A model generated the notes under the pieces. It worked only from the letters and a program-made list of their open reading frames with translations. It made no database searches and was not told the origin of the DNA. A stretch of DNA of 64,000 bases from Dillenia suffruticosa. Its lineage: Eukaryota > Streptophyta > Magnoliopsida > Dilleniales > Dilleniaceae. Numbering within the stretch: position 1 is the first letter of the stretch; every line of letters starts with the position of its first letter. Shown here piece after piece: positions 1 through 22,376 of this stretch. Where the stretch lies: positions 14,969,674-15,033,673 of the forward strand of contig JAVTVX010000002.1 of the NCBI GenBank assembly GCA_033439265.1, written 5' to 3'. A program made the position numbers and the translations under genes.

Positions 1-556
1 GCACTTGGGCTTTAACTAGTTATAGTGTGTACCTGTGGGATATAGCAACATGGGACAGTTTGTTTTCCTTTTCATGCTTTCTATGGTTCTACTGAATTCT
101 GCACTTCTTTCTCAAGGTACGTTCTTTTCCCCTCCCTATATTTCTCTTGGTCTTTTCTGTTTTCTTATTTATCTTTTCTAATCTCTAGTTGCTAGTCTTA
201 CCATGTCAGTTTGAAAAATTAATGAGCAAAATTCATAATTAACTTAAGAATTTTTTTTTTAAAAAAAAAAATAAAAGCGTCAAGAAGGTAAAAAAATAGA
301 ATATATAATAAAGATTATAAAAACTAATTTATTGTAACTAAAATCTAATAGAAGAGAAGAAGATAAGCAAAATCAAAGCCTCAACACATAATTTTTGTTT
401 AATAATTGGATCATAGAAGAATCCTGCCAAGTCAATCATATCGTGTGTATCATCACATGGTTAAAATTAACGTGGTTAAAATTAGCATATCATTACATAG
501 TTGAAATTATCGAAAACTAGAGCAGGTTCCACACTTTACTACTGTTGTGCATTGAA

Positions 557-579
557 GGCACATCCACTCTTCATGTGCC
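557..579 (-). other. Conserved hairpin just 3' of the tRNA (representative)
   Basis: GGCACAT and ATGTGCC form a perfect 7-bp stem with a 9-nt loop, beginning 5 nt after the tRNA discriminator base on the tRNA strand. It is present unchanged in copies 1 to 17, weakened by one pair in copy 18 and partly lost in copy 19. It lies upstream of the first run of four T, so it would be in the primary tRNA transcript. Confidence 0.7.
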
Positions 580-584
580 ACAAA

Positions 585-666
585 CGTGAGCGGCAGGATT
601 CGAACCTGCGCGGGCAGAGCCCACATGATTTCTAGTCATGCCCGATAACCACTCCGGCACGCCCAC
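585..666 (-). tRNA. tRNA-Ser(AGA): tRNA-Ser (AGA), array copy 1
   Basis: Read on the minus strand this is an 82-nt class II tRNA: acceptor GTGGGCG/CGCTCAC with one G-T wobble, 3-bp D stem, anticodon arm CATGA-CTAGAAA-TCATG giving anticodon AGA (decodes UCU), long variable arm GGGC-TCT-GCCC, T arm GCAGG-TTCGAAT-CCTGC and discriminator G. The A box (TGCCGGAGTGG) and B box (GGTTCGAATCC) are good Pol III promoter elements. There is no intron and no encoded CCA. A CAA trinucleotide lies 5-7 nt upstream, the usual plant tRNA start context, behind an AT-rich stretch. Downstream only TTT follows directly; the first run of four T is about 69 nt away. Either this copy or any other may be silent, which sequence alone cannot show. 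Confidence 0.97.
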
Positions 667-975
667 CTGATTGGCCTTTCTAACCATAAAGATCCTATAA
701 TTTTATTTTGTTTATGAGATGTTCATTATATATATATCTCCGTTGCCAATTTTATTGCCAATAATTGCTATTGAAATATTGGTTGTGTGTGAAAATTAAT
801 TTTCACCAATGTAATTATAAAAATGACACAAATATTATATTATGTGCCCCAATGTAGTTGTATTCTAACTAAAACTCGGTATAAAAATATTTAAAAGAAA
901 GACTAATATTGCTTTGAAGGTGAAAAGATATAGTAATATAACGTCAAATGAAAAGATTAATATTGGTTGTTTGCT

Positions 976-1148
976 TATAAATGTTGCTACTCTCTCTCTC
1001 TCTCAAGTCTAACCCTAGTTCACCTCAATTACGCACTTGGGCTTTAACTAGTTATAGTGTGTACCTGTGGGATATAGCAACATGGGACAGTTTGTTTTCC
1101 TTTTCATGCTTTCTATGGTTCTACTGAATTCTGCACTTCTTTCTCAAG
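976..1148 (+). promoter_or_regulatory. Promoter, CT leader and signal-peptide exon (representative of 20 copies)
   Basis: Seen: a TATAAAT box at 976-982, a CT repeat right after it, an ATG at 1082, a 22-codon hydrophobic reading frame beginning MGQFVFLFMLSMVLL and a strong splice donor (CTCAAG|GTACGT) at 1148/1149, leaving one base of a split codon. The spacing suits a Pol II core promoter with a ~75-nt leader. The frame looks like a secretory signal peptide ending near an Ala/Ser cleavage site. ATG positions in successive units are 50, 1082, 2115, 3147, 4180, 5214, 6248, 7265, 8297, 9331, 10364, 11394, 12423, 13457, 14489, 15504, 17571 and 18602. The copy at 16535 has GTG for ATG and the copy at 19603 has a stop at codon 3. 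No indel breaks the frame in the 18 intact copies. Unspliced, the frame would end after 43 codons. Whether it is transcribed is inference. Confidence 0.5.
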
Positions 1149-1615
1149 GTACGTTCTTTTCCCCTCCCTATATTTCTCTTGGTCTTTTCTGTTTTCTTAT
1201 TTATCTTTTCTAATCTCTAGTTGCTAGTCTTACCATGTCAGTTTGAAAAATTAATGAGCAAAATTCATAATTAACTTAAAAATTTTTTTTAAAAAAAAAA
1301 AATAAAAGCGTCAAGAAGGTAAAAAAATAGAATATATACTAAAGAATATAAAAACTAATTTATTGTAACTAAAATCTAATAGAAGAGAAGAAGATAAGCA
1401 AAATCAAAGCCTCAACACATAATTTTTGTTTAATAATTGGATCATAGAAGAATCCTGCCAAGTCAATCATATCGTGTGTATCATCACATGGTTAAAATTA
1501 ACGTGGTTAAAATTAGCATATCATTACATAGTTGAAATTATCGAAAACTAGAGCAGGTTCCACACTTTACTACTGTTGTGCATTGAAGGCACATCCACTC
1601 TTCATGTGCCACAAA

Positions 1616-1697
1616 CGTGAGCGGCAGGATTCGAACCTGCGCGGGCAGAGCCCACATGATTTCTAGTCATGCCCGATAACCACTCCGGCACGCCCAC
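1616..1697 (-). tRNA. tRNA-Ser(AGA): tRNA-Ser (AGA), array copy 2
   Basis: Sequence identical to copy 1, with all arms, AGA anticodon and A/B boxes intact. It sits in a unit of the 'B' subtype (ACTAAAGAAT variant downstream of the tRNA). Confidence 0.97.
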
Positions 1698-2649
1698 CTG
1701 ATTGGCCTTTCTAACCATAAAGATCCTATAATTTTATTTTGTTTATGAGATGTTCATTATATATATATCTCCGTTGCCAATTTTATTGCCAATAATTGCT
1801 ATTGAAATATTGGTTGTGTGTGAAAATTAATTTTCACCAATGTAATTATAAAAATGACACAAATATTATATTATGTGCCCCAATGTAGTTGTATTCTAAC
1901 TAAAACTCGGTATAAAAATATTTAAAAGAAAGACTAATATTGCTTTGAAGGTGAAAAGATATAGTAATATAACGTCAAATGAAAAGATTAATATTGGTTG
2001 TTTGCTTATAAATGTTGCTACTCTCTCTCTCTCTCTCAAGTCTAACCCTTGTTCACCTCAATTACGCACTTGGGCTTTAACTAGTTATAGTGTGTACCTG
2101 TGGGATATAGCAACATGGGACAGTTTGTTTTCCTTTTCATGCTTTCTATGGTTCTACTGAATTCTGCACTTCTTTCTCAAGGTACGTTCTTTTCCCCTCC
2201 CTATATTTCTCTTGGTCTTTTCTGTTTTCTTATTTATCTTTTCTAATCTCTAGTTGCTAGTCTTACCATGTCAGTTTGAAAAATTAATGAGCAAAATTCA
2301 TAATTAACTTAAGAATTTTTTTTTTAAAAAAAAAAATAAAAGCGTCAAGAAGGTAAAAAAATAGAATATATAATAAAGATTATAAAAACTAATTTATTGT
2401 AACTAAAATCTAATAGAAGAGAAGAAGATAAGCAAAATCAAAGCCTCAACACATAATTTTTGTTTAATAATTGGATCATAGAAGAATCCTGCCAAGTCAA
2501 TCATATCGTGTGTATCATCACATGGTTAAAATTAACGTGGTTAAAATTAGCATATCATTACATAGTTGAAATTATCGAAAACTAGAGCAGGTTCCACACT
2601 TTACTACTGTTGTGCATTGAAGGCACATCCACTCTTCATGTGCCACAAA

Positions 2650-2731
2650 CGTGAGCGGCAGGATTCGAACCTGCGCGGGCAGAGCCCACATGATTTCTAG
2701 TCATGCCCGATAACCACTCCGGCACGCCCAC
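2650..2731 (-). tRNA. tRNA-Ser(AGA): tRNA-Ser (AGA), array copy 3
   Basis: Sequence identical to copy 1. Its upstream flank has the CCTAAAATTTT variant that marks most 'A'-subtype units. Confidence 0.97.
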
Positions 2732-3680
2732 CTGATTGGCCTTTCTAACCATAAAGATCCTAAAATTTTATTTTGTTTATGAGATGTTCATTATATATAT
2801 ATCTCCGTTGCCAATTTTATTGCCAATAATTGCTATTGAAATATTGGTTGTGTGTGAAAATTAATTTTCACCAATGTAATTATAAAAATGACACAAATAT
2901 TATATTATGTGCCCCAATGTAGTTGTATTCTAACTAAAACTCGGTATAAAAATATTTAAAAGAAAGACTAATATTGCTTTGAAGGTGAAAAGATATAGTA
3001 ATATAACGTCAAATGAAAAGATTAATATTGGTTGTTTGCTTATAAATGTTGCTACTCTCTCTCTCTCTCAAGTCTAACCCTAGTTCACCTCAATTACGCA
3101 CTTGGGCTTTAACTAGTTATAGTGTGTACCTGTGGGATATAGCAACATGGGACAGTTTGTTTTCCTTTTCATGCTTTCTATGGTTCTACTGAATTCTGCA
3201 CTTCTTTCTCAAGGTACGTTCTTTTCCCCTCCCTATATTTCTCTTGGTCTTTTCTGTTTTCTTATTTATCTTTTCTAATCTCTAGTTGCTAGTCTTACCA
3301 TGTCAGTTTGAAAAATTAATGAGCAAAATTCATAATTAACTTAAAAATTTTTTTAAAAAAAAAAAAATAAAAGCGTCAAGAAGGTAAAAAAATAGAATAT
3401 ATACTAAAGAATATAAAAACTAATTTATTGTAACTAAAATCTAATAGAAGAGAAGAAGATAAGCAAAATCAAAGCCTCAACACATAATTTTTGTTTAATA
3501 ATTGGATCATAGAAGAATCCTGCCAAGTCAATCATATCGTGTGTATCATCACATGGTTAAAATTAACGTGGTTAAAATTAGCATATCATTACATAGTTGA
3601 AATTATCGAAAACTAGAGCAGGTTCCACACTTTACTACTGTTGTGCATTGAAGGCACATCCACTCTTCATGTGCCACAAA

Positions 3681-3762
3681 CGTGAGCGGCAGGATTCGAA
3701 CCTGCGCGGGCAGAGCCCACATGATTTCTAGTCATGCCCGATAACCACTCCGGCACGCCCAC
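3681..3762 (-). tRNA. tRNA-Ser(AGA): tRNA-Ser (AGA), array copy 4
   Basis: Sequence identical to copy 1; its unit is of the 'B' subtype, like copy 2. Confidence 0.97.
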
Positions 3763-4714
3763 CTGATTGGCCTTTCTAACCATAAAGATCCTATAATTTT
3801 ATTTTGTTTATGAGATGTTCATTATATATATATCTCCGTTGCCAATTTTATTGCCAATAATTGCTATTGAAATATTGGTTGTGTGTGAAAATTAATTTTC
3901 ACCAATGTAATTATAAAAATGACACAAATATTATATTATGTGCCCCAATGTAGTTGTATTCTAACTAAAACTCGGTATAAAAATATTTAAAAGAAAGACT
4001 AATATTGCTTTGAAGGTGAAAAGATATAGTAATATAACGTCAAATGAAAAGATTAATATTGGTTGTTTGCTTATAAATGTTGCTACTCTCTCTCTCTCTC
4101 TCAAGTCTAACCCTTGTTCACCTCAATTACGCACTTGGGCTTTAACTAGTTATAGTGTGTACCTGTGGGATATAGCAACATGGGACAGTTTGTTTTCCTT
4201 TTCATGCTTTCTATGGTTCTACTGAATTCTGCACTTCTTTCTCAAGGTACGTTCTTTTCCCCTCCCTATATTTCTCTTGGTCTTTTCTGTTTTCTTATTT
4301 ATCTTTTCTAATCTCTAGTTGCTAGTCTTACCATGTCAGTTTGAAAAATTAATGAGCAAAATTCATAATTAACTTAAGAATTTTTTTTTTAAAAAAAAAA
4401 ATAAAAGCGTCAAGAAGGTAAAAAAATAGAATATATAATAAAGATTATAAAAACTAATTTATTGTAACTAAAATCTAATAGAAGAGAAGAAGATAAGCAA
4501 AATCAAAGCCTCAACACATAATTTTTGTTTAATAATTGGATCATAGAAGAATCCTGCCAAGTCAATCATATCGTGTGTATCATCACATGGTTAAAATTAA
4601 CGTGGTTAAAATTAGCATATCATTACATAGTTGAAATTATCGAAAACTAGAGCAGGTTCCACACTTTACTACTGTTGTGCATTGAAGGCACATCCACTCT
4701 TCATGTGCCACAAA

Positions 4715-4796
4715 CGTGAGCGGCAGGATTCGAACCTGCGCGGGCTGAGCCCACATGATTTCTAGTCATGCCCGATAACCACTCCGGCACGCCCAC
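4715..4796 (-). tRNA. tRNA-Ser(AGA): tRNA-Ser (AGA), array copy 5, variable-arm variant
   Basis: Differs from copy 1 by a single base in the loop of the long variable arm (GGGCTCAGCCC instead of GGGCTCTGCCC on the tRNA strand). The stem still pairs, so the fold and anticodon AGA are kept. Confidence 0.95.
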
Positions 4797-5748
4797 CTGA
4801 TTGGCCTTTCTAACCATAAAGATCCTAAAATTTTATTTTGTTTATGAGATGTTCATTATATATATATCTCCGTTGCCAATTTTATTGCCAATAATTGCTA
4901 TTGAAATATTGGTTGTGTGTGAAAATTAATTTTCACCAATGTAATTATAAAAATGACACAAATATTATATTATGTGCCCCAATGTAGTTGTATTCTAACT
5001 AAAACTCGGTATAAAAATATTTAAAAGAAAGACTAATATTGCTTTGAAGGTGAAAAGATATAGTAATATAACGTCAAATGAAAAGATTAATATTGGTTGT
5101 TTGCTTATAAATGTTGCTACTCTCTCTCTCTCTCTCAAGTCTAACCCTTGTTCACCTCAATTACGCACTTGGGCTTTAACTAGTTATAGTGTGTACCTGT
5201 GGGATATAGCAACATGGGACAGTTTGTTTTCCTTTTCATGCTTTCTATGGTTCTACTGAATTCTGCACTTCTTTCTCAAGGTACGTTCTTTTCCCCTCCC
5301 TATATTTCTCTTGGTCTTTTCTGTTTTCTTATTTATCTTTTCTAATCTCTAGTTGCTAGTCTTACCATGTCAGTTTGAAAAATTAATGAGCAAAATTCAT
5401 AATTAACTTAAGAATTTTTTTTTTAAAAAAAAAAATAAAAGCGTCAAGAAGGTAAAAAAATAGAATATATAATAAAGATTATAAAAACTAATTTATTGTA
5501 ACTAAAATCTAATAGAAGAGAAGAAGATAAGCAAAATCAAAGCCTCAACACATAATTTTTGTTTAATAATTGGATCATAGAAGAATCCTGCCAAGTCAAT
5601 CATATCGTGTGTATCATCACATGGTTAAAATTAACGTGGTTAAAATTAGCATATCATTACATAGTTGAAATTATCGAAAACTAGAGCAGGTTCCACACTT
5701 TACTACTGTTGTGCATTGAAGGCACATCCACTCTTCATGTGCCACAAA

Positions 5749-5830
5749 CGTGAGCGGCAGGATTCGAACCTGCGCGGGCAGAGCCCACATGATTTCTAGT
5801 CATGCCCGATAACCACTCCGGCACGCCCAC
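5749..5830 (-). tRNA. tRNA-Ser(AGA): tRNA-Ser (AGA), array copy 6
   Basis: Sequence identical to copy 1; 'A'-subtype unit following another 'A' unit, which breaks the earlier A-B alternation. Confidence 0.97.
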
Positions 5831-6767
5831 CTGATTGGCCTTTCTAACCATAAAGATCCTAAAATTTTATTTTGTTTATGAGATGTTCATTATATATATA
5901 TCTCCGTTGCCAATTTTATTGCCAATAATTGCTATTGAAATATTGGTTGTGTGTGAAAATTAATTTTCACCAATGTAATTATAAAAATGACACAAATATT
6001 ATATTATGTGCCCCAATGTAGTTGTATTCTAACTAAAACTCGGTATAAAAATATTTAAAAGAAAGACTAATATTGCTTTGAAGGTGAAAAGATATAGTAA
6101 TATAACGTCAAATGAAAAGATTAATATTGGTTGTTTGCTTATAAATGTTGCTACTCTCTCTCTCTCTCTCAAGTCTAACCCTAGTTCACCTCAATTACGC
6201 ACTTGGGCTTTAACTAGTTATAGTGTGTACCTGTGGGATATAGCAACATGGGACAGTTTGTTTTCCTTTTCATGCTTTCTATGGTTCTACTGAATTCTCC
6301 ACTTCTTTCTCAAGGTACGTTCTTTTCCCCTCGCTATATTTCTCTTGGTCTTTTCTGTTTTCTTATTTATCTTTTCTAATCTCTAGTTGCTAGTCTTACC
6401 ATGTCAGTTTGAAAAATTAATGAGCAAAATTCATAATTAACTTAAGAATTATTTTTAAAAAAAAAAAATAAATGCGTCAAGAAGGTAAAAAAATAGAATA
6501 TAAAAACTAATTTATTGTAACTAAAATCTAATAGAAGAGAAGAAGATAAGCAAAATCAGAACCTCAACACATAATTTTTGTTTAATAATTGGATCATAGA
6601 AGAATCCCGCCAAGTTAATCATATCGTGTGTGTCATCACATGGTTAAAATTAACGTGGTTAAAATTAGCATATCATTACATAGTTGAAATTATCGAAAAC
6701 TAGAGCAGGTTCCACACTTTACTACTGTTGTGCATTGAAGGCACATCCACTCTTCATGTGCCACAAA

Positions 6768-6849
6768 CGTGAGCGGCAGGATTCGAACCTGCGCGGGCAG
6801 AGCCCACATGATTTCTAGTCATGCCCGATAACCACTCCGGCACGCCCAC
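6768..6849 (-). tRNA. tRNA-Ser(AGA): tRNA-Ser (AGA), array copy 7
   Basis: Sequence identical to copy 1. Its unit is a third subtype ('C', with AATTATTTTTAAA) and is slightly short because of a small deletion near 6495. Confidence 0.97.
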
Positions 6850-7797
6850 CTGATTGGCCTTTCTAACCATAAAGATCCTATAATTTTATTTTGTTTATGA
6901 GATGTTCATTATATATATATCTCCGTTGCCAATTTTATTGCCAATAATTGCTATTGAAATATTGGTTGTGTGTGAAAATTAATTTTCACCAATGTAATTA
7001 TAAAAATGACACAAATATTATATTATGTGCCCCAATGTAGTTGTATTCTAACTAAAACTCGGTATAAAAATATTTAAAAGAAAGACTAATATTGCTTTGA
7101 AGGTGAAAAGATATAGTAATATAACGTCAAATGAAAAGATTAATATTGGTTGTTTGCTTATAAATGTTGCTACTCTCTCTCTCTCTCAAGTCTAACCCTA
7201 GTTCACCTCAATTACGCACTTGGGCTTTAACTAGTTATAGTGTGTACCTGTGGGATATAGCAACATGGGACAGTTTGTTTTCCTTTTCATGCTTTCTATG
7301 GTTCTACTGAATTCTGCACTTCTTTCTCAAGGTACGTTCTTTTCCCCTCCCTATATTTCTCTTGGTCTTTTCTGTTTTCTTATTTATCTTTTCTAATCTC
7401 TAGTTGCTAGTCTTACCATGTCAGTTTGAAAAATTAATGAGCAAAATTCATAATTAACTTAAAAATTTTTTTTAAAAAAAAAAATAAAAGCGTCAAGAAG
7501 GTAAAAAAATAGAATATATACTAAAGAATATAAAAACTAATTTATTGTAACTAAAATCTAATAGAAGAGAAGAAGATAAGCAAAATCAAAGCCTCAACAC
7601 ATAATTTTTGTTTAATAATTGGATCATAGAAGAATCCTGCCAAGTCAATCATATCGTGTGTATCATCACATGGTTAAAATTAACGTGGTTAAAATTAGCA
7701 TATCATTACATAGTTGAAATTATCGAAAACTAGAGCAGGTTCCACACTTTACTACTGTTGTGCATTGAAGGCACATCCACTCTTCATGTGCCACAAA

Positions 7798-7879
7798 CGT
7801 GAGCGGCAGGATTCGAACCTGCGCGGGCAGAGCCCACATGATTTCTAGTCATGCCCGATAACCACTCCGGCACGCCCAC
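7798..7879 (-). tRNA. tRNA-Ser(AGA): tRNA-Ser (AGA), array copy 8
   Basis: Sequence identical to copy 1; 'B'-subtype unit. Confidence 0.97.
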
Positions 7880-8831
7880 CTGATTGGCCTTTCTAACCAT
7901 AAAGATCCTATAATTTTATTTTGTTTATGAGATGTTCATTATATATATATCTCCGTTGCCAATTTTATTGCCAATAATTGCTATTGAAATATTGGTTGTG
8001 TGTGAAAATTAATTTTCACCAATGTAATTATAAAAATGACACAAATATTATATTATGTGCCCCAATGTAGTTGTATTCTAACTAAAACTCGGTATAAAAA
8101 TATTTAAAAGAAAGACTAATATTGCTTTGAAGGTGAAAAGATATAGTAATATAACGTCAAATGAAAAGATTAATATTGGTTGTTTGCTTATAAATGTTGC
8201 TACTCTCTCTCTCTCTCTCAAGTCTAACCCTTGTTCACCTCAATTACGCACTTGGGCTTTAACTAGTTATAGTGTGTACCTGTGGGATATAGCAACATGG
8301 GACAGTTTGTTTTCCTTTTCATGCTTTCTATGGTTCTACTGAATTCTGCACTTCTTTCTCAAGGTACGTTCTTTTCCCCTCCCTATATTTCTCTTGGTCT
8401 TTTCTGTTTTCTTATTTATCTTTTCTAATCTCTAGTTGCTAGTCTTACCATGTCAGTTTGAAAAATTAATGAGCAAAATTCATAATTAACTTAAGAATTT
8501 TTTTTTTAAAAAAAAAAATAAAAGCGTCAAGAAGGTAAAAAAATAGAATATATAATAAAGATTATAAAAACTAATTTATTGTAACTAAAATCTAATAGAA
8601 GAGAAGAAGATAAGCAAAATCAAAGCCTCAACACATAATTTTTGTTTAATAATTGGATCATAGAAGAATCCTGCCAAGTCAATCATATCGTGTGTATCAT
8701 CACATGGTTAAAATTAACGTGGTTAAAATTAGCATATCATTACATAGTTGAAATTATCGAAAACTAGAGCAGGTTCCACACTTTACTACTGTTGTGCATT
8801 GAAGGCACATCCACTCTTCATGTGCCACAAA

Positions 8832-8913
8832 CGTGAGCGGCAGGATTCGAACCTGCGCGGGCAGAGCCCACATGATTTCTAGTCATGCCCGATAACCACT
8901 CCGGCACGCCCAC
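8832..8913 (-). tRNA. tRNA-Ser(AGA): tRNA-Ser (AGA), array copy 9
   Basis: Sequence identical to copy 1; 'A'-subtype unit with the CCTAAAATTTT upstream variant. Confidence 0.97.
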
Positions 8914-9864
8914 CTGATTGGCCTTTCTAACCATAAAGATCCTAAAATTTTATTTTGTTTATGAGATGTTCATTATATATATATCTCCGTTGCCAATTTT
9001 ATTGCCAATAATTGCTATTGAAATATTGGTTGTGTGTGAAAATTAATTTTCACCAATGTAATTATAAAAATGACACAAATATTATATTATGTGCCCCAAT
9101 GTAGTTGTATTCTAACTAAAACTCGGTATAAAAATATTTAAAAGAAAGACTAATATTGCTTTGAAGGTGAAAAGATATAGTAATATAACGTCAAATGAAA
9201 AGATTAATATTGGTTGTTTGCTTATAAATGTTGCTACTCTCTCTCTCTCTCTCAAGTCTAACCCTAGTTCACCTCAATTACGCACTTGGGCTTTAACTAG
9301 TTATAGTGTGTACCTGTGGGATATAGCAACATGGGACAGTTTGTTTTCCTTTTCATGCTTTCTATGGTTCTACTGAATTCTCCACTTCTTTCTCAAGGTA
9401 CGTTCTTTTCCCCTCCCTATATTTCTCTTGGTCTTTTCTGTTTTCTTATTTATCTTTTCTAATCTCTAGTTGCTAGTCTTACCATGTCAGTTTGAAAAAT
9501 TAATGAGCAAAATTCATAATTAACTTAAGAATTATTTTTAAAAAAAAAAAATAAATGCGTCAAGAAGGTAAAAAAATAGAATATATAATAAAGAATATAA
9601 AAACTAATTTATTGTAACTAAAATCTAATAGAAGAGAAGAAGATAAGCAAAATCAGAACCTCAACACATAATTTTTGTTTAATAATTGGATCATAGAAGA
9701 ATCCCGCCAAGTTAATCATATCGTGTGTGTCATCACATGGTTAAAATTAACGTGGTTAAAATTAGCATATCATTACATAGTTGAAATTATCGAAAACTAG
9801 AGCAGGTTCCACACTTTACTACTGTTGTGCATTGAAGGCACATCCACTCTTCATGTGCCACAAA

Positions 9865-9946
9865 CGTGAGCGGCAGGATTCGAACCTGCGCGGGCAGAGC
9901 CCACATGATTTCTAGTCATGCCCGATAACCACTCCGGCACGCCCAC
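9865..9946 (-). tRNA. tRNA-Ser(AGA): tRNA-Ser (AGA), array copy 10
   Basis: Sequence identical to copy 1; 'C'-subtype unit like copy 7. It is the last copy before the more diverged right part of the array. Confidence 0.97.
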
Positions 9947-10892
9947 CTGATTGGCCTTTCTAACCATAAAGATCCTATAATTTTATTTTGTTTATGAGAT
10001 GTTCATTATATATATATCTTCGTTGCCAATTTTATTGCCAATAATTGCTATTGAAATATTGGTTGTGTGAAAATTAATTTTCACCAATGTAATTATAAAA
10101 ATGACACAAATATTATATTATGTGCCCCAATGTAGTTGTATTCTAACTAAAACTCGGTATAAGAATATTTAAAAGAAAGACTAATATTGCTTTGAAGGTG
10201 AAAAGATATAGTAATATAACGTCAAATGAAAAGATTAATATTGGTTGTTTGCTTATAAATGTTGCTACTCTCTCTCTTTCTCTCTCAAGTCTAACCGTAG
10301 TTCACCTCAATTACGCACTTGGGCTTTAAGTTGTTATAGTGTGTACCTGTGGGATATAGCAACATGGGACAGTTTGTTTTCCTTTTCATGCTTTCTATGA
10401 TTCTACTGAATTCTCCACTTCTTTCTCAAGGTTAGTTCTTTTCCCCTCCCTATATTTCTCTTGGTCTTTTCTTTTTTCTTATTTATCTTTTCTAATCTCT
10501 TGTTGCTAGTATTATCATGTAAGTTTGAAAAATTAAAAGGCGAAATTTGTAATTAAATTAAGAATTTTTTTTAAAAAAATAAAAACGTCAAGAAGAGAAA
10601 AAAATAGAATATATAATAAAAAATATAAAAACTAATTTATTGTAACTAAAATCTAATAGAAGAGAAGAAGATAAGCAAAATCAAAACCTCAACACATAAT
10701 TTTTGTTTAATAATTGGATCATAGAAGAATCCCGCCAAGTTAATCATATCGTGTGTATCATCACATGGTTAAAATTAGCGTGGTTAAAATTAGCATATCA
10801 TTCCATAGTTGAAATTATCGAAAACTAGAGCAGGTTCCACACTTTACTACTGTTGTGCATTGAAGGCACATCCACTCTTCATGTGCCACAAA

Positions 10893-10974
10893 CGTGAGCG
10901 GCAGGATTCGAACCTGCGCAGGCAGAGCCCACATGATTTCTAGTCATGCCCGATAACCACTCCGGCACGCCCAC
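10893..10974 (-). tRNA. tRNA-Ser(AGA): tRNA-Ser (AGA), array copy 11, variable-arm wobble
   Basis: One base differs from copy 1: the variable arm reads GGGC-TCT-GCCT on the tRNA strand, turning a G-C pair into G-U. Acceptor, anticodon (AGA) and T arms are unchanged, so it should still fold. Confidence 0.93.
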
Positions 10975-11923
10975 CTGATTGGCCTTTCTAACCAGAAAGA
11001 TCCTATAATTTTATTTTGTTTCTGAGATGTTCATTATATATATATCTCCTTTGCCAATTTTATTGCCAATAATTGCTATTGAAATATTGGTTGTGTGTGA
11101 AAATTAATTTTCACCAATGTAATTATAAAAATGACACAAATATTATATTCTATGCCCCAATGTAGTTGTATTCTAACTAAAACTCGGTATAAGAATATTT
11201 AAAAGAAAGACTAATATTGCTTTGAAGGTGAAAAGATATAGTAATATAACGTCAAATGAAAACATTAATATTGGTTGTTTGCTTATAAATGTTGCTACTC
11301 TCTCTCTTTCTCTCTCAAGTCTAACCGTAGTTCACCTCAATTACGCACTTGGGCTTTAAGTTGTTATAGTGTGTACCTGTGGGATATAGCAACATGGGAC
11401 AGTTTGTTTTCCTTTTCATGCTTTCTATGATTCTACTGAATTCTCCACTTCTTTCTCAAGGTTCGTTCTTTTCCCCTCCCTATATTTCTCTTGGTCTTTT
11501 CTTTTTTCTTATTTATCTTTTCTAATCTCTTGTTGCTAGTATTATCATGTGAGTTTGAAAAATTAAAAGGCAAAATTTGTAATTAAATTAAGAATTTTTT
11601 TTAAAAAAAATAAAACCGTCAAGAAGAGAAAAAAATAGAATATATAATAAAAAATATAAAAACTAATTTATTGTAACTAAAATCTAATTGAAGAGAAGAA
11701 GATAAGCAAAATCAAAACCTCAACACATAATTTTTGTTTAATAATTGGATCATAGAAGAATCCCGCCAAGTCAATCATATCGTGTGTATCATCACATGGT
11801 TTAAAATAGCGTGGTTAAAATTAGCATATCATTACATAGTTGAAATTATCGAAAACTAGAGCAGGTTCCACACTTTACTACTGTTTTGCATTGAAGGCAC
11901 ATCCACTCTTCATGTGCCACAAA

Positions 11924-12005
11924 CGTGAGCGGCAGGATTCGAACCTGCGCGGGCAGAGCCCACATGATTTCTAGTCATGCCCGATAACCACTCCGGCACG
12001 CCCAC
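11924..12005 (-). tRNA. tRNA-Ser(AGA): tRNA-Ser (AGA), array copy 12
   Basis: Sequence identical to copy 1 although the surrounding unit has many substitutions, so the gene body is better conserved than its flanks. Confidence 0.97.
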
Positions 12006-12955
12006 CTGATTGGCCTTTCTAACCATAAAGATCCTATAATTTTATATTGTTTATGAGATGTTCATTATATATATATCTCCGTTGCCAATTTTATTGCCAA
12101 TAATTGCTATTGAAATATTGGTTGTGTGTGAAAATTAATTTTCACCAATGTAATTATAAAAATGACACAAATATTATATTATGTGCCCCAATGTATCTGT
12201 ATTCTAACTAAAACTCGGTATAAAAATATTTAAAAGAAGGACTAATATTGCTTTGAAGGTGAAAAGATATAGTAATATAACGTCAAATGAAAACATTAAT
12301 ATTGGTTGTTTGCTTATAAATGTTGCTACTCTCTCTCTCTCTCTCAAGTCTAACCCTAGTTCACCTCAATTACGCACTTGGGCTTTAACTTGTTATAGTG
12401 TGTACCTGTGGGATATAGCAACATGGGACAGTTTGTTTTCCTTTTCATGCTTTCTATGGTTCTACTGAATTCTGCACTTCTTTCTCAAGGTACGTTCTTT
12501 TCCCCTCCCTATATTTCTCTTGGTCTTTTCTGTTTTCTTATTTATCTTTTCTAATCTCTAGTTGCTAGTCTTACCATGTCAGTTTGAAAAATTAATGAGC
12601 AAAATTCATAATTAACTTAAGAATTTTTTTTTTTTAAAAAAATAAAAGCGTCAAGAAGAGAAAAAAATAGAATATATAATAAAGAATATAAAAACTAATT
12701 TATTGTAACTAAAATCTAATAGAAGAGAAGAAGATAAGCAAAATCAGAACCTCAACACATAATTTTTGTTTAATAATTGGATCATAGAAGAATCCCGGCA
12801 AGTCAATCATACTGTGTGTATCATCACACGGTTAAAATTAGCGTGGTTAAAATTAGCATATCATTACAAAGTTGAAATTATCGAAAACTAGAGCAGGTTC
12901 CACACTTTACCACTGTTGTGCATTGAAGGCACATCCACTCTTCATGTGCCACAAA

Positions 12956-13037
12956 CGTGAGCGGCAGGATTCGAACCTGCGCGGGCAGAGCCCACATGAT
13001 TTCTAGTCATGCCCGATAACCACTCCGGCACGCCCAC
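12956..13037 (-). tRNA. tRNA-Ser(AGA): tRNA-Ser (AGA), array copy 13
   Basis: Sequence identical to copy 1. This unit and the next share private variants such as ATACTGTGTG and TTTACCACTG, marking a recent duplication of one unit. Confidence 0.97.
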
Positions 13038-13989
13038 CTGATTGGCCTTTCTAACCATAAAGATCCTATAATTTTATTTTGTTTGTGAGATGTAAATTAT
13101 ATATATATCTCCATTGCCAATTTTATTGCCAATAATTGCTATTGAAATATTGGTTGTGTGTGAAAATTAATTTTCACCAATGTAATTACAAAAATGACAC
13201 AAATATTATATTATGTGCCCCAATGTAGTTGTATTCTAACTAAAACTCGGTATAAGAATATTTAAAAGAAAGACTAATATTGCTTTGAAGGTGAAAAGAT
13301 ATAGTAATATAACGTCAAATGAAAACATTAATATTGGTTGTTTGCTTATAAATGTTGCTACTCTCTCTCTTTCTCTCTCAAGTCTAACCGTAGTTCACCT
13401 CAATTACGCACTTGGGCTTTAAGTTGTTATAGTGTGTACCTGTGGGATATAGCAACATGGGACAGTTTGTTTTCCTTTTCATGCTTTCTATGGTTCTACT
13501 GAATTCTGCACTTCTTTCTCAAGGTACGTTCTTTTCCCCTCCCTATATTTCTCTTGGTCTTTTCTGTTTTCTTATTTATCTTTTCTAATCTCTAGTTGCT
13601 AGTCTTACCATGTCAGTTTGAAAAATTAATGAGCAAAATTCATAATTAACTTAAGAATTTTTTTTTTTTAAAAAAATAAAAGCGTCAAGAAGAGAAAAAA
13701 ATAGAATATATAATAAAGAATATAAAAACTAATTTATTGTAACTAAAATCTAATAGAAGAGAAGAAGATAAGCAAAATCAGAACCTCAACACATAATTTT
13801 TGTTTAATAATTGGATCATAGAAGAATCCCGGCAAGTCAATCATACTGTGTGTATCATCACACGGTTAAAATTAGCGTGGTTAAAATTAGCATATCATTA
13901 CAAAGTTGAAATTATCGAAAACTAGAGCAGGTTCCACACTTTACCACTGTTGTGCATTGAAGGCACATCCACTCTTCATGTGCCACAAA

Positions 13990-14071
13990 CGTGAGCGGCA
14001 GGATTCGAACCTGCGCGGGCAGAGCCCACATGATTTCTAGTCATGCCCGATAACCACTCCGGCACGCCCAC
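13990..14071 (-). tRNA. tRNA-Ser(AGA): tRNA-Ser (AGA), array copy 14
   Basis: Sequence identical to copy 1; sister unit of copy 13 at 1034 bp spacing, sharing its private variants. Confidence 0.97.
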
Positions 14072-15003
14072 CTGATTGGCCTTTCTAACCATAAAGATCC
14101 TATAATTTTATTTTGTTTGTGAGATGTAAATTATATATATATCTCCATTGCCAATTTTATTGCCAATAATTGCTATTGAAATATTGGTTGTGTGTGAAAA
14201 TTAATTTTCACCAATGTAATTACAAAAATGACACAAATATTATATTATGTGCCCCAATGTAGTTGTATTCTAACTAAAACTCGGTATAAGAATATTTAAA
14301 AGAAAGACTAATATTGCTTTGAAGGTGAAAAGATATAGTAATATAACGTCAAATGAAAACATTAATATTGGTTGTTTGCTTATAAATGTTGCTACTCTCT
14401 CTCTCTCTCTCAAGTCTAACCCTAGTTCACCTCAATTACGCACTTGGGCTTTAAGTTGTTATAGTGTGTACCTGTGGGATATAGCAACATGGGACAGCTT
14501 GTTTTCCTTTTCATGCTTTCTATGATTCTACTGAATTCTCCACTTCTTTCTCAAGGTACGTTCTTTTCCCCTCCCTATATTTCTCTTGGTCTTTTCTTTT
14601 TTCTTATTTATCTTTTCTAATCTCTTGTTGCTAGTATTATCATGTAAGTTTGAAAAATTAAAAGGCAAAATTTGTAATTAAATTACGAATTTTTTAAAAA
14701 AAAAATAAAACCGTCAAGAAGAGAAAAAAATAGAATATATAATAAAAACTATAAAAACTAATTTATTGTAACTAAAATCTAATAGAAGAGAAGAAGATAA
14801 GCAAAATCAAAACCTCAACACATAATTTTTGTTTAATAATTGGATCATAGAAGAATCCCGTCAAGTCAATCATATCGTGTCTATCATCACATGGTTAAAA
14901 TTAGCATATCATTACATAGTTGAAATTATCGAAAACTAGAGCAGGTTCCACACTTTACTACTGTTGTGCATTGAAGGCACATCCACTCTTCATGTGCCAC
15001 AAA

Positions 15004-15085
15004 CGTGAGCGGCAGGATTCGAACCTGCGCGGGCAGAGCCCACATGATTTCTAGTCATGCCCGATAACCACTCCGGCACGCCCAC
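15004..15085 (-). tRNA. tRNA-Ser(AGA): tRNA-Ser (AGA), array copy 15
   Basis: Sequence identical to copy 1. The stretch starting here and running ~590 bp rightwards matches the stretch starting at copy 18, exactly 3098 bp away. Confidence 0.97.
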
Positions 15086-16036
15086 CTGATTGGCCTTTCT
15101 AACCATAAAGATCCTATAATTTTATTTTGTTTATGAGATGTTCATTATATATATATCTCCGTTGCCAATTTTATTGCCAATAATTGCTATTGAAATATTG
15201 GTTGTGTGTGAAAATTAATTTTCACCAATGTAATTATAAAAATGACACAAATATTATATTATGTGCCCCAATGTAGTTGTATTCTAACTAAAACTCGGTA
15301 TAAGAATATTTAAAAGAAAGACTAATATTGCTTTGAACGTGAAAGATATAGTAATATAACGTCAAATGAAAACATTAATATTGGTTGTTTGCTTATAAAT
15401 GTTGCTACTCTCTCTCTCTCTCTCTCAAGTTTAACCCTAGTTCACCTCAATTACGCCCTTGGGCTTTAAGTTGTTGTAGTGTGTACCTGTGGGATATAGC
15501 AACATGGGACAGTTTGCTTTCCTTTTCATGCTTTCTATGGTTCTACTAAATTTTGCACTTCTTTCTCAAGGTACGTTCTTTTCCCCTCCCTATATTTATC
15601 TTGGTCTTTTCTGTTTACTTATTTATCTTTTCTAATCTCTAGTCGCTAGTCTTACCATGTCAGTTTGAAAAATTAAAGAGCAAAATTCATAATTAAATTA
15701 AGAATTTTTAAAAAAAAATAAAATAAAACCGTCAAGAAGAGAAAAAATTAGAATATATAATAAAGAATATAAAAACTAATTTGTTGTAACTAAAATCTAA
15801 TAGAAGAGAAGAAGATAAGCCTAATCAGAACCTCAACACATAATTTTTGTTTAATAATTGGATCATAGAAGAATCCCGGCAAGTCAATCATACTGTGTGT
15901 ATCATCACACGGTTAAAATTAGCGTGGTTAAAATTAGCATATCATTACAAAGTTGAAATTATCGAAAACTGGAGCAGGTTCCACACTTTACTACTGTTGT
16001 GCATTGAAGGCACATCCACTCTTCATGTGCCACAAA

Positions 16037-16118
16037 CGTGAGCGGCAGGATTCGGACATGCGCGGGCAGAGCCCACATGATTTCTAGTCATGCCCGGTAA
16101 CCACTCCGGCACGCGCAC
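16037..16118 (-). pseudogene. Decayed tRNA-Ser (AGA), array copy 16
   Basis: The anticodon arm still reads AGA, but the T arm is damaged (stem GCATG against CCTGC, loop TCCGAAT), so the B box no longer fits GGTTCGAATCC. The acceptor also has a C-T mismatch (GTGCGCG against CGCTCAC). Loss of the B box argues against efficient Pol III transcription. In the same unit the signal-peptide exon has lost its ATG (GTG at 16535), so both elements of this unit look dead. Confidence 0.85.
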
Positions 16119-17065
16119 TTGATTGGCCTTTCTAATCATAAAGATACTCTAATTTTATTTTGTTTATGAGATGTTCATTATATATTTATCTCTATTGCCA
16201 ATTTTATTGGCAATAATTGCTACTGAAATATTGGTTGTGTGTGAAAATTAATTTTCACCAATGTAATTATAAAAATGACACAAATATTATATTATGTACC
16301 CCAATGTAGTTGTTTTGTGACTAAAACTCGATATAAGAATATTTAAAAGAAAGACTAATATTGCTTTGAAGGTGAAAAGATATAGTAATATAACGTCAAA
16401 TGAAAAGATTAATATTGGTTGTTTGCTTATAAATGTTGCTACTCTCTCTCTCTCTCAATTCTAACCCTAGTTCACCGCAATTACGCACTTGGGCTTTAAG
16501 TTGTTATAGTGTGGACACTGTGGGATATAGCAACGTGGGACAATTTGTTTTCCTTTTCATGCTTTTTATGGTTCTACTTAATTCTCCACTTCTTTCTCAA
16601 GGTACGTTCTTTTCCCCTCCCTATATTTCTCTTGGTCTTTTCTGTTTTCTTATTTATCTTTTCTAATCTCTAGTTACTAGTATTATCATGTAAGTTTGAA
16701 AAATTAAAGGGCAAAATTCATAATTAAATTAAGAATTTTAAAAAATAAAAAATAAAACCGTCAAGAAGAGAAAAAAATAGAATATGTAATAAAGAATATA
16801 AAAACTAATTTATTGTAACTAAAATCTAATAGAAGAGAAGAAGATAAGCAAAATCAGAACCTCAACACATAATTTTTGTTTAATAATTGGATCATGGAAG
16901 AATCCCGGCAAGTCAATCATATGGTGTGTGTCATCACATGGTTAAAATTAGCGTAGTTAAAATTAGCATATCATTAAATAGTTGAAATTATCGAAAACTA
17001 GGGCAGGTTCCACACTTTACTACTGTTGTGCATTGAAGGCACATCCACTCTTCATGTGCCACAAA

Positions 17066-17147
17066 CGTGAGCGGCAGGATTCGGACCTATGCGGGCAGAG
17101 CCCACATGAATTCTAGTCTTGCCCGATAACCACTCCGGCACACCCAC
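17066..17147 (-). pseudogene. Decayed tRNA-Ser (AGA), array copy 17
   Basis: The anticodon stem is mismatched (CAAGA against TCATG, with an altered loop), the T stem reads ATAGG against CCTGC and the T loop is TCCGAAT, breaking the B box. The acceptor has an extra wobble (GTGGGTG). The TCCGAAT change is shared with copy 16, so the two probably descend from one damaged unit. Confidence 0.85.
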
Positions 17148-18101
17148 CTGATTGGCCTTTCTAACCATAAAGATACTATAATTTTGTTTTGTTTATGAAA
17201 TGTTCATTATATATATATCTCCATTGCCAATTTTATTGCCAATATTTGCTACTGAAGTATTGGTTGTGTGTGAAAATTAATTTTCACCAATGTAATTATA
17301 AAAATGGCAGAAATATTATATTGTGTGCCCCAATTTAGTTGTTTTGTAACTAAAACTCGGTATAAGAATATTTAAAAGAAAGACTAATATTGCTTTGAAG
17401 GTGAAAAGATATAGTAATATAACGTCAAATGAAAAGATTAATATTGGTTGTTTGCTTATAAATGTTGCTACTCTCTCTCTCTATCTCTCTCTCAAGTCTA
17501 ACCCTAGTTCACCTCAATTACGCACTTGGGCTTTAAGTTGTTATAGTGTGTACCTGTGGGATATAGCAACATGGGACAGTTTGTTTTCCTTTTCATGGTT
17601 TTTATGGTTCTACTGAATTCTCCACTTCTTTCTCAAGGTACGTTCTTTTTCCCTCCCTATATTTCTCTTGGTCTTTTCTGTTTTCTTATTTATCTTTTCT
17701 AATCTCTAGTTACTAGTCTTACCATGTCAGTTTGAAAAATTAAAGGGCAAAATTCATAATTAAATTAAGAATTTGTTAAAAAATAAATAAAACCGTCAAG
17801 AAGAGAAAAAAATAGAATATATAATAAAGATTATAAAAACTAATTTATTGTAACTAAAATCTAATAGAAGAGAAGAAGATAAGCAAAATCAGAACCTCAA
17901 CACATAATTTTTGTTTAATAATTGGATCATAGAAGAATCCCGCCAAGTCAAATCATATCGTGTGTATCATCACATGGTTAAAATTAGCGTAGTTAAAATT
18001 AGCATATCATTACATAGTTGAAATTATCAAAAACTAGAGCAGGTTCCACACTTTACTACTGTTGTGCATTGAAGGCACATCCACTCTTCTTGTGCCACAA
18101 A

Positions 18102-18183
18102 CGTGAGCGGCAGGATTCGAACCTGCGCGGGCAGAGCCCACATGATTTCTAGTCATGCCCGATAACCACTCCGGCACGCCCAC
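18102..18183 (-). tRNA. tRNA-Ser(AGA): tRNA-Ser (AGA), array copy 18
   Basis: Sequence identical to copy 1 and fully foldable, although the two units to its left are decayed and the one to its right is diverged. The flanking ~590 bp match copy 15, suggesting this gene was replaced by gene conversion. Confidence 0.96.
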
Positions 18184-19094
18184 CTGATTGGCCTTTCTAA
18201 CCATAAAGATCCTATAATTTTATTTTGTTTATGAGATGTTCATTATATATATATCTTCGTTGCCAATTTTATTGCCAATAATTGCTATTGAAATATTGGT
18301 TGTGTGTGAAAATTAATTTTCACCAATGTAATTATAAAAATGACACAAATATTATATTATGTGCCCCAATGTAGTTGTATTCTAACTAAAACTCGGTATA
18401 AGAATATTTAAAAGAAAGACTAATATTGCTTTGAACGTGAAAGATATAGTAATATAACGTCAAATGAAAACATTAATATTGGTTGTTTGCTTATAAATGT
18501 TGCTACTCTCTCTCTCTCTCTCTCAAGTTTAACCCTAGTTCACCTCAATTACGCCCTTGGGCTTTAAGTTGTTGTAGTGTGTACCTGTGGGATATAGCAA
18601 CATGGGACAGTTTGCTTTCCTTTTCATGCTTTCTATGGTTCTACTAAATTTTGCACTTCTTTCTCAAGGTACGTTCTTTTCCCCTCCCTATATTTCTCTT
18701 GGTCTTTTCTTTTTTCTTATTTATCTTTTCTAATCTCTAGTTGCTAGTCTTACCATGTCAGTTTGAAAAATTAATGGGTAAAATTCATAATTAAATTAAG
18801 AAATTTATAAAATAAAATAAAATATAGCCGTCAAGAAGAGAAAAAAATGAAATATATAATGAAGAATATTAAAACTAATTTACTATAATTAAAACCTAGT
18901 AGAAGAGAGGAAGATGAGCAAAATTAGAGCCTCAACACGTAATTTTTTTAAATAATCGGATCATAGAAAAATCCTAGCAAGTCAATCCCATTGTGTGTAT
19001 CATCACATGGTTAAAATTTGCGAAAACTAGAGCAAGTTACACACTTCACTACTATTGTGCATTGATGGTACATCCACTCTTCCCGTGCCACAAA

Positions 19095-19176
19095 CGTGAG
19101 CGGCAGGATTCGAACCTACGCGGGCAGAGCCCACATGATTTCTAGTCATGCCCGATAACCACTCCGGCACGCCCAC
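19095..19176 (-). tRNA. tRNA-Ser(AGA): tRNA-Ser (AGA), array copy 19 (last)
   Basis: One change from copy 1 places a U-G wobble in the T stem (GTAGG against CCTGC). The B box, anticodon AGA and acceptor are intact, so it probably still folds. It lies in the most diverged unit of the array, whose 3' hairpin and signal-peptide exon are degraded. Confidence 0.85.
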
Positions 19177-19501
19177 CTGGTTTGCCTTTATGACGATATA
19201 GATAGTATAATTTGTTTTTTTTTCTGAGATGTTCATTATATATGTATATATCTCCATTGCCAATTTTGTTGTTAATAATTGCTATTGAAATATTGGTTGT
19301 GTGCGAATGGATGAAAATTAATTTTCACAATTGTAATTATAAAAATAATACACAAATATTATATTATTTGCCCTAATTTAGTTGTTTTGTAACTAAAACT
19401 CAATATAAGAATATTTTAAGAAAAGATTAATGTTGCGTGAAAAAATATAGTAATATAAAGTCAAAACAAAAGATTAATATTGGTTGTTTGCTTATAAATG
19501 T

Positions 19502-19740
19502 TGCTACTTTCTCTCTCTCTCTCTCTAATCTAACCCTGGTTCACCTCAATTACACTCTTAGGCTTTAAGTTGTTATATTGTGTACTTGTGGGATTTGGCA
19601 ACATGAAGTAGTTTATTTTCCTTTTCATGCTTTCAATGGTTCTACTGAATTCTCCACTTAAGTCTATAATGCTAGAAAATAAATCCTTTTGTGGTTTTAG
19701 ATTTTGCACCATATGGATAAATTTTAAATTTGCAGGTTCA
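19502..19740 (+). pseudogene. Terminal, broken copy of the signal-peptide exon
   Basis: This is the right end of the tandem array. The CT repeat and leader are recognisable, but the ATG at 19603 is followed by K and a stop, and the exon stops matching other copies near 19658, where the CTTTCTC block and the splice donor are missing. From there the sequence is unlike the rest of the array and leads into the region with the candidate second exon. Confidence 0.6.
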
Positions 19741-19859
19741 GTTTTATATATGACGACTTAAAAATTAAGTTAGCAATCCATTTGTCAATCATACGAAAAA
19801 AGAAGTATATTCTCTATCTCAAGTCTAATGGCTTTCCTTTGGGCTTGCTTGCGGTGCAG

Positions 19860-19979
19860 GACCAACGCCATACGGCAAGAACGAAACTAAGTGGTGCATG
19901 TGGACCAAATGGCTACTTCGAATGCTTTCTTGTATTCAATTCTAAATATGGGGCAACCAAAATGCCAATGAATTGCTAA
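19860..19979 (+). pseudogene. Possible second exon of a small Cys-containing secreted peptide
   Basis: A plant-like acceptor (TTGCGGTGCAG) precedes an open frame of 39 codons ending in TAA. The frame contains SGACGPNG, YFEC and KYGATKMPMNC, so it has Cys at residues 14, 22 and 39 in a spacing reminiscent of plant defensin-like or pollen-coat-type peptides. The last Cys is directly before the stop, where such peptides often end in C-x-C. It lies just past the array's last signal-peptide exon, where a duplicated gene's unduplicated part would be expected. Against this, the acceptor at 19860 gives phase 0 whereas the array exon ends in phase 1, and the adjacent first exon is broken. I treat it as a relic; the family is a guess from the Cys pattern. 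Confidence 0.27.
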
Positions 19980-20061: not shown

Positions 20062-20228
20062 ATTTTTTCGGTCTCTATGGTTAGGTCACCATCCGGTATT
20101 CAAGGTTTTGTCCCGACTAATCCGGACCGACCTGACTGTCGGGCCTCATTTGAGGAAGAGGTCTCCTAACATTGTTTTTTTCATGCACAGGGGAAGTCGA
20201 ACTCCCGATCTAGTTAAGGGATGAAGGT
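20062..20228 (-). mobile_element. SINE copy (degenerate), left of the U2 array
   Basis: Shares with the other copies the blocks GGACCGACC, GACTAATCCGG and TCGAACTCCCGATCTAG in minus orientation. No clear target-site duplication is visible. It sits between the tRNA-array edge and the first U2 unit. Confidence 0.6.
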
Positions 20229-20409
20229 GTCATTCTCATCTAGAGGTTATTTCTTTTCACCTAGAGGTTTCAAGTTCGAGCTATTGTAGACAACCTGAAG
20301 GCCTCTCACCAAAGGCAATGGGAGGGTCCTACATCTCACATCGTTTGATTGGAAAGATAGCTCAAGACACAGGCTTGTGTATAAGTGAAAGGCTCTTCCA
20401 TGTTTAATC

Positions 20410-20600
20410 ATATCTTTCTTGGCCTTTTGGCCAAGATCAAGTGTGGTATTATGTCATATCGTTTAATATTTGATATGTTGGCTATTCTCTCACATGATAT
20501 TAAATTAATTTTTTAATGGGATGGCCCGCCACGATAGCTTGTTATTGGGGCCTTCATGCGTTGCCCTTGCGTTGCACAATAGCATGAGCCTGGCGCCCCA
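20410..20600 (+). pseudogene. U2 snRNA, copy 1, degenerate
   Basis: It begins ATATCTTTCTTGG and keeps most of the U2 layout, including the 3' box (AGTCCAA). The branch-point-pairing region reads GTGGTATTATG instead of GTAGTATCTG, stem II is altered, and the upstream element at 20333 is ATCTCACATCG, one base off the plant consensus. A change in the branch-recognition bases makes a working spliceosomal U2 unlikely. Confidence 0.8.
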
Positions 20601-22262: not shown

Positions 22263-22376
22263 AAAATTTATTCATGCCCCTTCAAAAGCATGTTTGAGTT
22301 CGATTTGAAACTAAGTTTATCAGTAGTGATGAACAATGCCAACTCTGAGATTAAATCGAGAAGGGGAGGGTCCTGT

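What the first reader, a model, noticed from the sequence alone, without database searches (positions are those of the whole stretch)
1..19730. Recently expanded tandem array of at least 19 tRNA-Ser(AGA) genes
Nineteen tRNA-Ser(AGA) loci sit in ~1.03-kb tandem units, all on the minus strand, continuing past the left edge. Clustered tRNA arrays are known in plants (for example the Ser/Tyr and Pro clusters of Arabidopsis chromosome 1), but a Ser(AGA)-only array with such long units that carry a second gene fragment is unusual. Fifteen of the loci are identical in sequence.
Basis: partly seen in the sequence, partly recalled or inferred. Interest (0 to 1): 0.7.

Follow-up and report, generated by a model that had tools for sequence, protein, structure and literature searches.

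The report
Tandem serine tRNA gene array
A plant chromosome carries a real, repeatedly rebuilt row of near-identical serine tRNA genes; such rows are a known kind of plant repeat, but this genome holds more than one, and in another of them about every second copy has a switched anticodon.

Summary
ARAGORN finds 19 tRNA-Ser(AGA) genes, all minus strand, start-to-start 993-1036 bp. Fourteen, not fifteen, are identical; 17 of 19 pass Rfam's tRNA cut-off. Four more lie upstream and about five are expected in a withheld 5 kb: roughly 28 units over about 29 kb. Each unit pairs the tRNA with the divergent 5' end (signal-peptide-like first exon) of a small protein gene. 'Recently expanded' holds only for the core: nine units differ by 0.66% on average, core to edges by 5-10%, and one unit shows a clean exchange breakpoint. 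It reads as an older array repeatedly rebuilt by unequal exchange. It is not alone: the same genome holds another serine row on contig C29, where AGA and CGA anticodons alternate every 740/1741 bp, and Cys and Ile rows. Plant tRNA arrays are known (Arabidopsis SYY and Cys, Pro rows, maize Ile), so I file it as a new member of a known kind. Expression was not testable; that most copies are redundant and mostly silent is inferred by analogy.

The parts
1..19659 (-). tandem array, window part: 19 tRNA genes, ~1.03 kb units; continues left of the window
585..666 (-). tRNA-Ser(AGA), commonest sequence
1616..1697 (-). tRNA-Ser(AGA), identical to 585
2650..2731 (-). tRNA-Ser(AGA), identical to 585
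3681..3762 (-). tRNA-Ser(AGA), identical to 585
4715..4796 (-). tRNA-Ser(AGA), 1 substitution
5749..5830 (-). tRNA-Ser(AGA), identical to 585
6768..6849 (-). tRNA-Ser(AGA), identical to 585
7798..7879 (-). tRNA-Ser(AGA), identical to 585
8832..8913 (-). tRNA-Ser(AGA), identical to 585
9865..9946 (-). tRNA-Ser(AGA), identical to 585
10893..10974 (-). tRNA-Ser(AGA), 1 substitution
11924..12005 (-). tRNA-Ser(AGA), identical to 585
12956..13037 (-). tRNA-Ser(AGA), identical to 585
13990..14071 (-). tRNA-Ser(AGA), identical to 585; its unit is an exchange mosaic
15004..15085 (-). tRNA-Ser(AGA), identical to 585
16037..16118 (-). tRNA-Ser(AGA), 4 substitutions, not over the Rfam cut-off (decayed)
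17066..17147 (-). tRNA-Ser(AGA), 6 substitutions, not over the Rfam cut-off (decayed)
18102..18183 (-). tRNA-Ser(AGA), identical to 585
19095..19176 (-). tRNA-Ser(AGA), 1 substitution, right-most copy
667..9946 (-). homogeneous core: nine complete units, mean pairwise divergence 0.66%
8188..8363 (+). example of the divergent gene fragment in each unit: TATA-like site at 8188, ATG at 8297, exon 1 to 8363, then a GT donor
19603..19979 (+). right-most gene copy: exon 1 with an early stop, and a downstream Cys-containing frame 19860-19976 plus stop (weak Pfam SCRL match, below cut-off)

Best explanation
This is a satellite-like tandem array of genuine nuclear tRNA-Ser(AGA) genes. SHOWN: units of about 1.03 kb, each a tRNA gene plus the divergent 5' end and first exon of a small protein gene; a homogeneous core, diverged edges, a clean exchange mosaic, intact tRNA bodies in most readable copies, and the same tRNA sequence at dispersed sites. 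INFERRED: a duplication caught the tRNA and the neighbouring gene's 5' end, and unequal crossing-over and gene conversion grew the row and keep homogenising its centre. INFERRED: intact copies could be read by Pol III from their internal promoter, but most are redundant and probably held silent, as reported for Arabidopsis clusters, perhaps with use in some tissue.
For: Nine core units 0.66% mean divergence; core to right edge 5.1%, core to left edge 10.3%. Exact repeat of 1778 bp at an offset of 6182 bp, so several units moved together. Unit 13990 has 29 diagnostic sites of unit 12956 then 11 of unit 15004, break between positions 606 and 649 (one of four triples tried, the others were mixed). 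Among 18 complete window units divergence rises with distance (Mantel r 0.42, p 0.0004). The same 82-nt tRNA occurs exactly at seven dispersed places. CAA within 12 nt upstream in 22 of 23 copies. Relatives of spacer parts lie about 116 kb left of the array (84% over about 140 bp) and on contig C4 (mostly 70-81% over about 107-238 bp).
Against: No expression, methylation or long-read data. T4 within 15 nt 3' of only 1 of 23 copies; in 20 of 23 the first T4 is at +68, so clean Pol III termination is doubtful. Singleton changes are no rarer in the tRNA (18 in 82 columns) than in the spacer (190 in 936; p 0.78) over 21 complete units, so purifying selection is not shown. Inside the core divergence does not rise with distance (r 0.01, p 0.41). 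On silence: the Arabidopsis SYY cluster is expressed in root tips despite high CG methylation (PMC12308677, passages).
Confidence: 0.82

Rival explanations
1. The array is a selected dosage amplification: many identical tRNA-Ser(AGA) genes supply a high serine demand in some tissue.
For: 15 of 23 readable copies are identical and match seven dispersed copies; a second serine row exists; the Arabidopsis SYY cluster is reactivated in root tips (PMC12308677, title, abstract start and passages).
Against: Singletons are no rarer in the tRNA than in the spacer; about 4 of 23 readable copies look decayed; no T4 within 15 nt in 22 of 23.
Confidence: 0.2
2. The row is an assembly artefact of a few real units.
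For: Some unit pairs are 100% identical (1616/7798, 2650/8832); no reads were available here.
Against: Ordered variation, edge divergence and a mosaic unit are not what simple false repetition gives; the window has no N and the contig is 17.8 Mb.
Confidence: 0.07
3. The amplified thing is chiefly the small protein gene, and the tRNA is a passenger.
For: 18 of 19 matched first exons in the window are open up to the donor; a TATA-like site precedes the one examined.
Against: The unit consensus holds only the first exon; the only downstream exon-like frame found is outside the last unit, behind a broken exon 1.
Confidence: 0.08
4. The units derive from a tRNA-carrying mobile element (SINE or Helitron-captured tRNA) arranged in tandem.
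For: Spacer relatives are scattered over contig C4, by coordinates beside 8 of the 9 tRNA-Ser copies there; the Arabidopsis Cys cluster overlaps Helitron annotations (PMC10701932, passages).
Against: Full-length unit matches were found only in this array (capped candidate lists); no element ends were identified or searched for.
Confidence: 0.12

Closest known systems
Arabidopsis thaliana chromosome 1 SYY (tRNA-Ser/Tyr/Tyr) cluster
   Same: Tandem rows with serine tRNA genes, a core region and variable flanks richer in pseudogenes (PMC12308677, passages)
   Different: Here one tRNA per ~1.03 kb unit, no Tyr genes, and each unit carries a protein-gene 5' fragment
Arabidopsis thaliana chromosome 5 tRNA-Cys cluster
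   Same: Single-isoacceptor tandem repeat (PMC10701932, passages)
   Different: 4-6 units of ~0.42 kb there, about 28 of ~1.03 kb here; the Cys row on contig C11 of this genome, with subunits of about 0.39 kb, is closer in unit length (sequence not compared)
Maize tRNA-Ile row (28 copies) and plant tRNA-Pro rows
   Same: Long single-amino-acid tandem tRNA rows (PMC11700998, passages)
   Different: Different isoacceptor; unit anatomy was not compared

Membership tests
plant tandem tRNA gene cluster | several tRNA genes of one or a few kinds repeated head-to-tail at one site | tested here: met
   19 in the window, 4 more upstream
plant tandem tRNA gene cluster | whole units shared, spacer included, with exchange between units | tested here: met
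plant tandem tRNA gene cluster | at least three tRNA genes per kb (definition used in PMC11700998) | tested here: not met
   about one gene per 1.03 kb; definition read; I take it as a survey threshold, not a biological criterion
plant tandem tRNA gene cluster | neighbours under 1 kb apart (definition used in PMC12652284) | tested here: met
   start-to-start 993-1036 less 82 nt gives gaps of 911-954 bp in the window; definition read
Arabidopsis SYY-type cluster | Ser-Tyr-Tyr order | tested here: not met
   only tRNA-Ser found in the window and the readable upstream (ARAGORN without introns, and plant tRNA-Tyr genes have introns, so intron-bearing Tyr genes were not sought; Rfam over the window also gave no other tRNA)
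functional Pol III tRNA gene | tRNA score above the curated cut-off | tested here: met
   17 of 19 window copies; upstream copies not scored with Rfam
functional Pol III tRNA gene | T-run terminator close to the 3' end | tested here: not met
   T4 within 15 nt in 1 of 23; not decisive, as a survey found poly(T) in only a fraction of plant tRNA genes (PMC11700998, abstract)
silenced clustered tRNA genes | DNA methylation and lack of Pol III occupancy | not testable with these tools
   no epigenomic or RNA data
SCRL (plant self-incompatibility response) peptide gene, for the gene fragment | Pfam SCRL above gathering score | tested here: not met
   14.3 bits against 23, E 0.047, on the downstream frame of the right-most copy; exon 1 alone gave no family

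The most novel reading that the evidence does not exclude
This genome tends to turn single tRNA genes into satellite-like arrays, and such arrays can be nurseries of new isoacceptors: of 46 near-identical serine tRNA places on contig C29, 19 bear a one-base anticodon change (AGA to CGA), and in the main row of 41 the two kinds mostly alternate at 740 and 1741 bp. If transcribed, a remoulded tRNA-Ser(CGA) would have been multiplied and fixed by array homogenisation rather than by selection on a single gene.
Probability: 0.2. Interest if true: 0.68.

Novelty: new member of a known kind. Interest (0 to 1): 0.42.

Why it matters
It adds a long serine-only array with protein-gene 5' ends to the described plant tRNA rows, in a genome where several isoacceptors have been amplified. 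That makes it a natural test of whether such rows are driven by demand or by repeat turnover, and the alternating AGA/CGA row on C29 would let anticodon switching be studied inside a homogenising repeat. Of the two survey definitions read here, the three-per-kb one (PMC11700998) would not count arrays with units near 1 kb.

Tried and rejected
Hairpin-trailer idea: by eye the trailer next to the tRNA has a short inverted match, but the 152-nt fold gave z -1.83 with 7 of 200 shuffles as good, and the minimum-energy structure was not a tRNA plus a separate hairpin; dropped.

Lack of terminators as a mark of the big rows. T4 within 15 nt: 1 of 23 (Ser C2), 1 of 32 (Ile C1), 2 of 20 (Ile C13), 1 of 42 (Cys C11, four sampled stretches), 2 of 7 (Lys C29); against 5 of 5, 11 of 13 and 2 of 3 in small Cys groups (C2b, C30, C8), 2 of 2 Ile on C10 (L007, L008), 3 of 3 Lys in L001, and 0 of 2 Lys in L002/L003 (L004, L005 and L006 overlap the groups and are not counted again). 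But a T4 directly abutting this serine tRNA's 3' end occurs at only two places in the genome, one inside this array and one dispersed, so abutting T4 is rare among dispersed serine copies too. The wider test (T4 within 1-12 nt) did not complete. Left open.

Methylation decay: 19 of 32 tRNA substitutions are C>T or G>A, 8 of them at CpG; not tested against expectation, not claimed.

Purifying selection on the tRNAs: not shown (18 singletons in 82 columns against 190 in 936, p 0.78). Leaving out units 16037 and 17066 after seeing the data did not change this (11 in 82 against 164 in 936, p 0.44); in those two units alone the tRNA had more singletons than the spacer (7 in 82 against 26 in 936, p 0.013). 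Units U51016 and the partial 585 unit were left out of these counts.

Exchange tests: four triples were tried; one gave a clean break (13990 against 12956 and 15004), the same unit against 12956 and 10893 a nearly clean one, 16037 a blurred change-over, 18102 no break.

A blastn self-comparison of the array printed no rows under my filter; the exact-run scan in the same call was used instead.
Full report
WHAT IS THERE. The window lies in an unnamed 596 Mb genome of 37 contigs, at G000:C2:14969674-15033673. It reads as a plant: HD-ZIP N-terminal, PPR and DUF761 (cotton fibre expressed protein) matches, and U2 snRNA copies preceded by what I recall as the plant upstream element (sites). ARAGORN reports 19 tRNA-Ser(AGA) genes from 585 to 19176, all minus. 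Rfam's tRNA model accepts 17 of 19; 16037 and 17066 are not listed at its cut-off. Spacing is 993-1036 bp, mean 1028.

EXTENT. Of the 60 kb fetched upstream, 55 kb is readable and the 5 kb next to the window is withheld. The readable part has four more tRNA-Ser(AGA) genes, with 8, 2, 0 and 9 substitutions from left to right. The gap fits six intervals, so about five copies are hidden: 4 + ~5 + 19, about 28 units over about 29 kb. On the left the array meets a retroelement-like sequence (seen; identity recalled, not searched). On the right, unit homology ends at 19659.

UNIT ANATOMY. Each unit holds the tRNA gene (minus) and, facing away from it on the plus strand, a leader exon that reads like a signal peptide (by eye; no predictor was run) and ends in a splice donor; in the unit examined a TATA-like site lies at 8188 and the ATG at 8297. 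Of 19 such exons matched in the window, 18 are open up to the donor and one, at 19603, has an early stop; the pattern missed one unit near 16.5 kb. Upstream, two exons were matched and both are altered. After the last unit a frame at 19860-19976 encodes a short Cys-containing peptide with a weak match to Pfam SCRL (E 0.047, 14.3 bits against a cut-off of 23). I therefore say only 'small protein gene fragment, probably secreted'. A relative of this gene region lies about 116 kb left of the array on the same contig.

HOW IT EVOLVED. Mean pairwise divergence is 0.66% among nine core units, 3.2% core to middle, 5.1% core to right edge and 10.3% core to left edge. An exact repeat of 1778 bp recurs at 6182 bp, so several units moved together. 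Unit 13990 carries 29 diagnostic sites of unit 12956 followed by 11 of unit 15004, a clean exchange; of four triples tried this was the cleanest. Divergence grows with distance over 18 complete window units (r 0.42, p 0.0004) but not inside the core (r 0.01, p 0.41). This is the picture expected of unequal exchange with a homogenised centre and ageing edges. So 'recently expanded' fits the core; the array itself is older. I give no date, since the species and its rate are unknown.

ARE THE tRNAs GOOD GENES? For: 15 of 23 readable copies are identical, the same sequence occurs exactly at seven dispersed sites, and a CAA lies within 12 nt upstream in 22 of 23. Against: T4 within 15 nt downstream in 1 of 23, at +68 in 20 of 23, and over 21 complete units singletons are as common in the tRNA (18 in 82 columns) as in the spacer (190 in 936; p 0.78). 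Fifteen of the 18 tRNA singletons are in three decayed copies (U54272, 16037, 17066), so copies look either intact or decaying, but selection is not shown. A published survey found poly(T) signals in only a fraction of plant tRNA genes (PMC11700998, abstract).

THE REST OF THE GENOME. Within 3 mismatches the tRNA has 86 places: 19 in this array (the more decayed and the withheld copies cannot appear), 46 on C29, 9 scattered on C4, 4 close together on C16 and 8 elsewhere (tallied by hand from its list). On C29, 19 of the 46 bear a single A-to-C change that turns the anticodon AGA into CGA; in 14 it is the only difference. In the main row of 41 (22 AGA, 19 CGA) the two kinds alternate at 740 and 1741 bp with a few breaks over about 51 kb. 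That CGA is a serine anticodon is recalled. Neither the spacer nor the 5' flank with the gene fragment gave a C29 match, and the C29 spacings differ, so the two rows were probably amplified separately; but one search scored only 19 candidates, skips very common words and did not even list the window's own units, so its silence is weak, and C29 spacers were not read. Other rows in fetched samples: tRNA-Ile(TAT) on C1 with units of about 819 bp; Ile on C13; tRNA-Cys on C11 with a 1160 bp repeat made of three subunits of about 0.39 kb, about 70% alike. If the C11 row is unbroken it holds about 100 repeats between 12583912 and 12700017, but I read only parts of it. How many rows the genome holds is not known: one search scored 63 of 49706 candidates.

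COMPARISON WITH WHAT IS KNOWN. Tandem tRNA rows are established in plants: the Arabidopsis SYY cluster with a core region and variable flanks (PMC12308677, passages), the Arabidopsis Cys cluster of ~0.42 kb units varying by whole units among ecotypes and described as apparently silenced (PMC10701932, passages), 28 tRNA-Ile in maize and tRNA-Pro rows (PMC11700998, passages), and, in a 50-species survey, up to 26 identical genes in one cluster and up to 110 genes in clusters of non-identical ones (PMC12652284, abstract and passages). The main paper on silencing of Arabidopsis clusters (Hummel 2020) is not held and was seen only as cited by others; PMC12308677 reports SYY expression in roots despite high CG methylation, which it contrasts with that paper. 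Nine paper searches were answered. I saw no serine-only array of this unit type in their listings or in the passages read; supplementary tables were not read, so this does not show that none is in print.

VERDICT. A real array of a known kind, with an unusual unit. The rows elsewhere in the genome, above all the AGA/CGA row on C29, are more interesting than the one in the window. What the row does is inferred: probably surplus copies kept by repeat turnover, mostly silent, perhaps used in some tissue.

Noticed in passing
G000:C29:8319168-8369968 (outside the window): Serine tRNA row of 41 near-identical copies (22 AGA, 19 CGA) mostly alternating at 740/1741 bp; five more AGA copies lie outside it.
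   Followed up: partly
G000:C11:12579001-12709720 (L026-L029, L035): tRNA-Cys row with a 1160 bp repeat of three subunits of about 0.39 kb; perhaps 100 repeats if unbroken, only parts read.
   Followed up: partly
G000:C1:4318484-4343452 (L017-L020): tRNA-Ile(TAT) row, units about 819 bp; T4 within 15 nt in 1 of the 32 tRNA calls in this stretch and its surroundings.
   Followed up: partly
window 20410-23610: Four U2 snRNA copies on the plus strand beside the array, about 1 kb apart; the one at 22454 scores far best (169 bits against 69-96). Copies 22454 and 23442 have ATCCCACATCG upstream, which I recall as the plant upstream element.
   Followed up: partly
window 20080-20290, and upstream near C2:14961.2 kb: Similar inserts with a tRNA-promoter-like motif, seen by eye, one inside an upstream unit and one between the array and the U2 genes; possibly a SINE.
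   Followed up: no
G000:C4:5709503-15860914: Nine scattered tRNA-Ser copies, 8 of them by coordinates beside stretches like the array's spacer: a dispersed family that may be related to the array's source.
   Followed up: no
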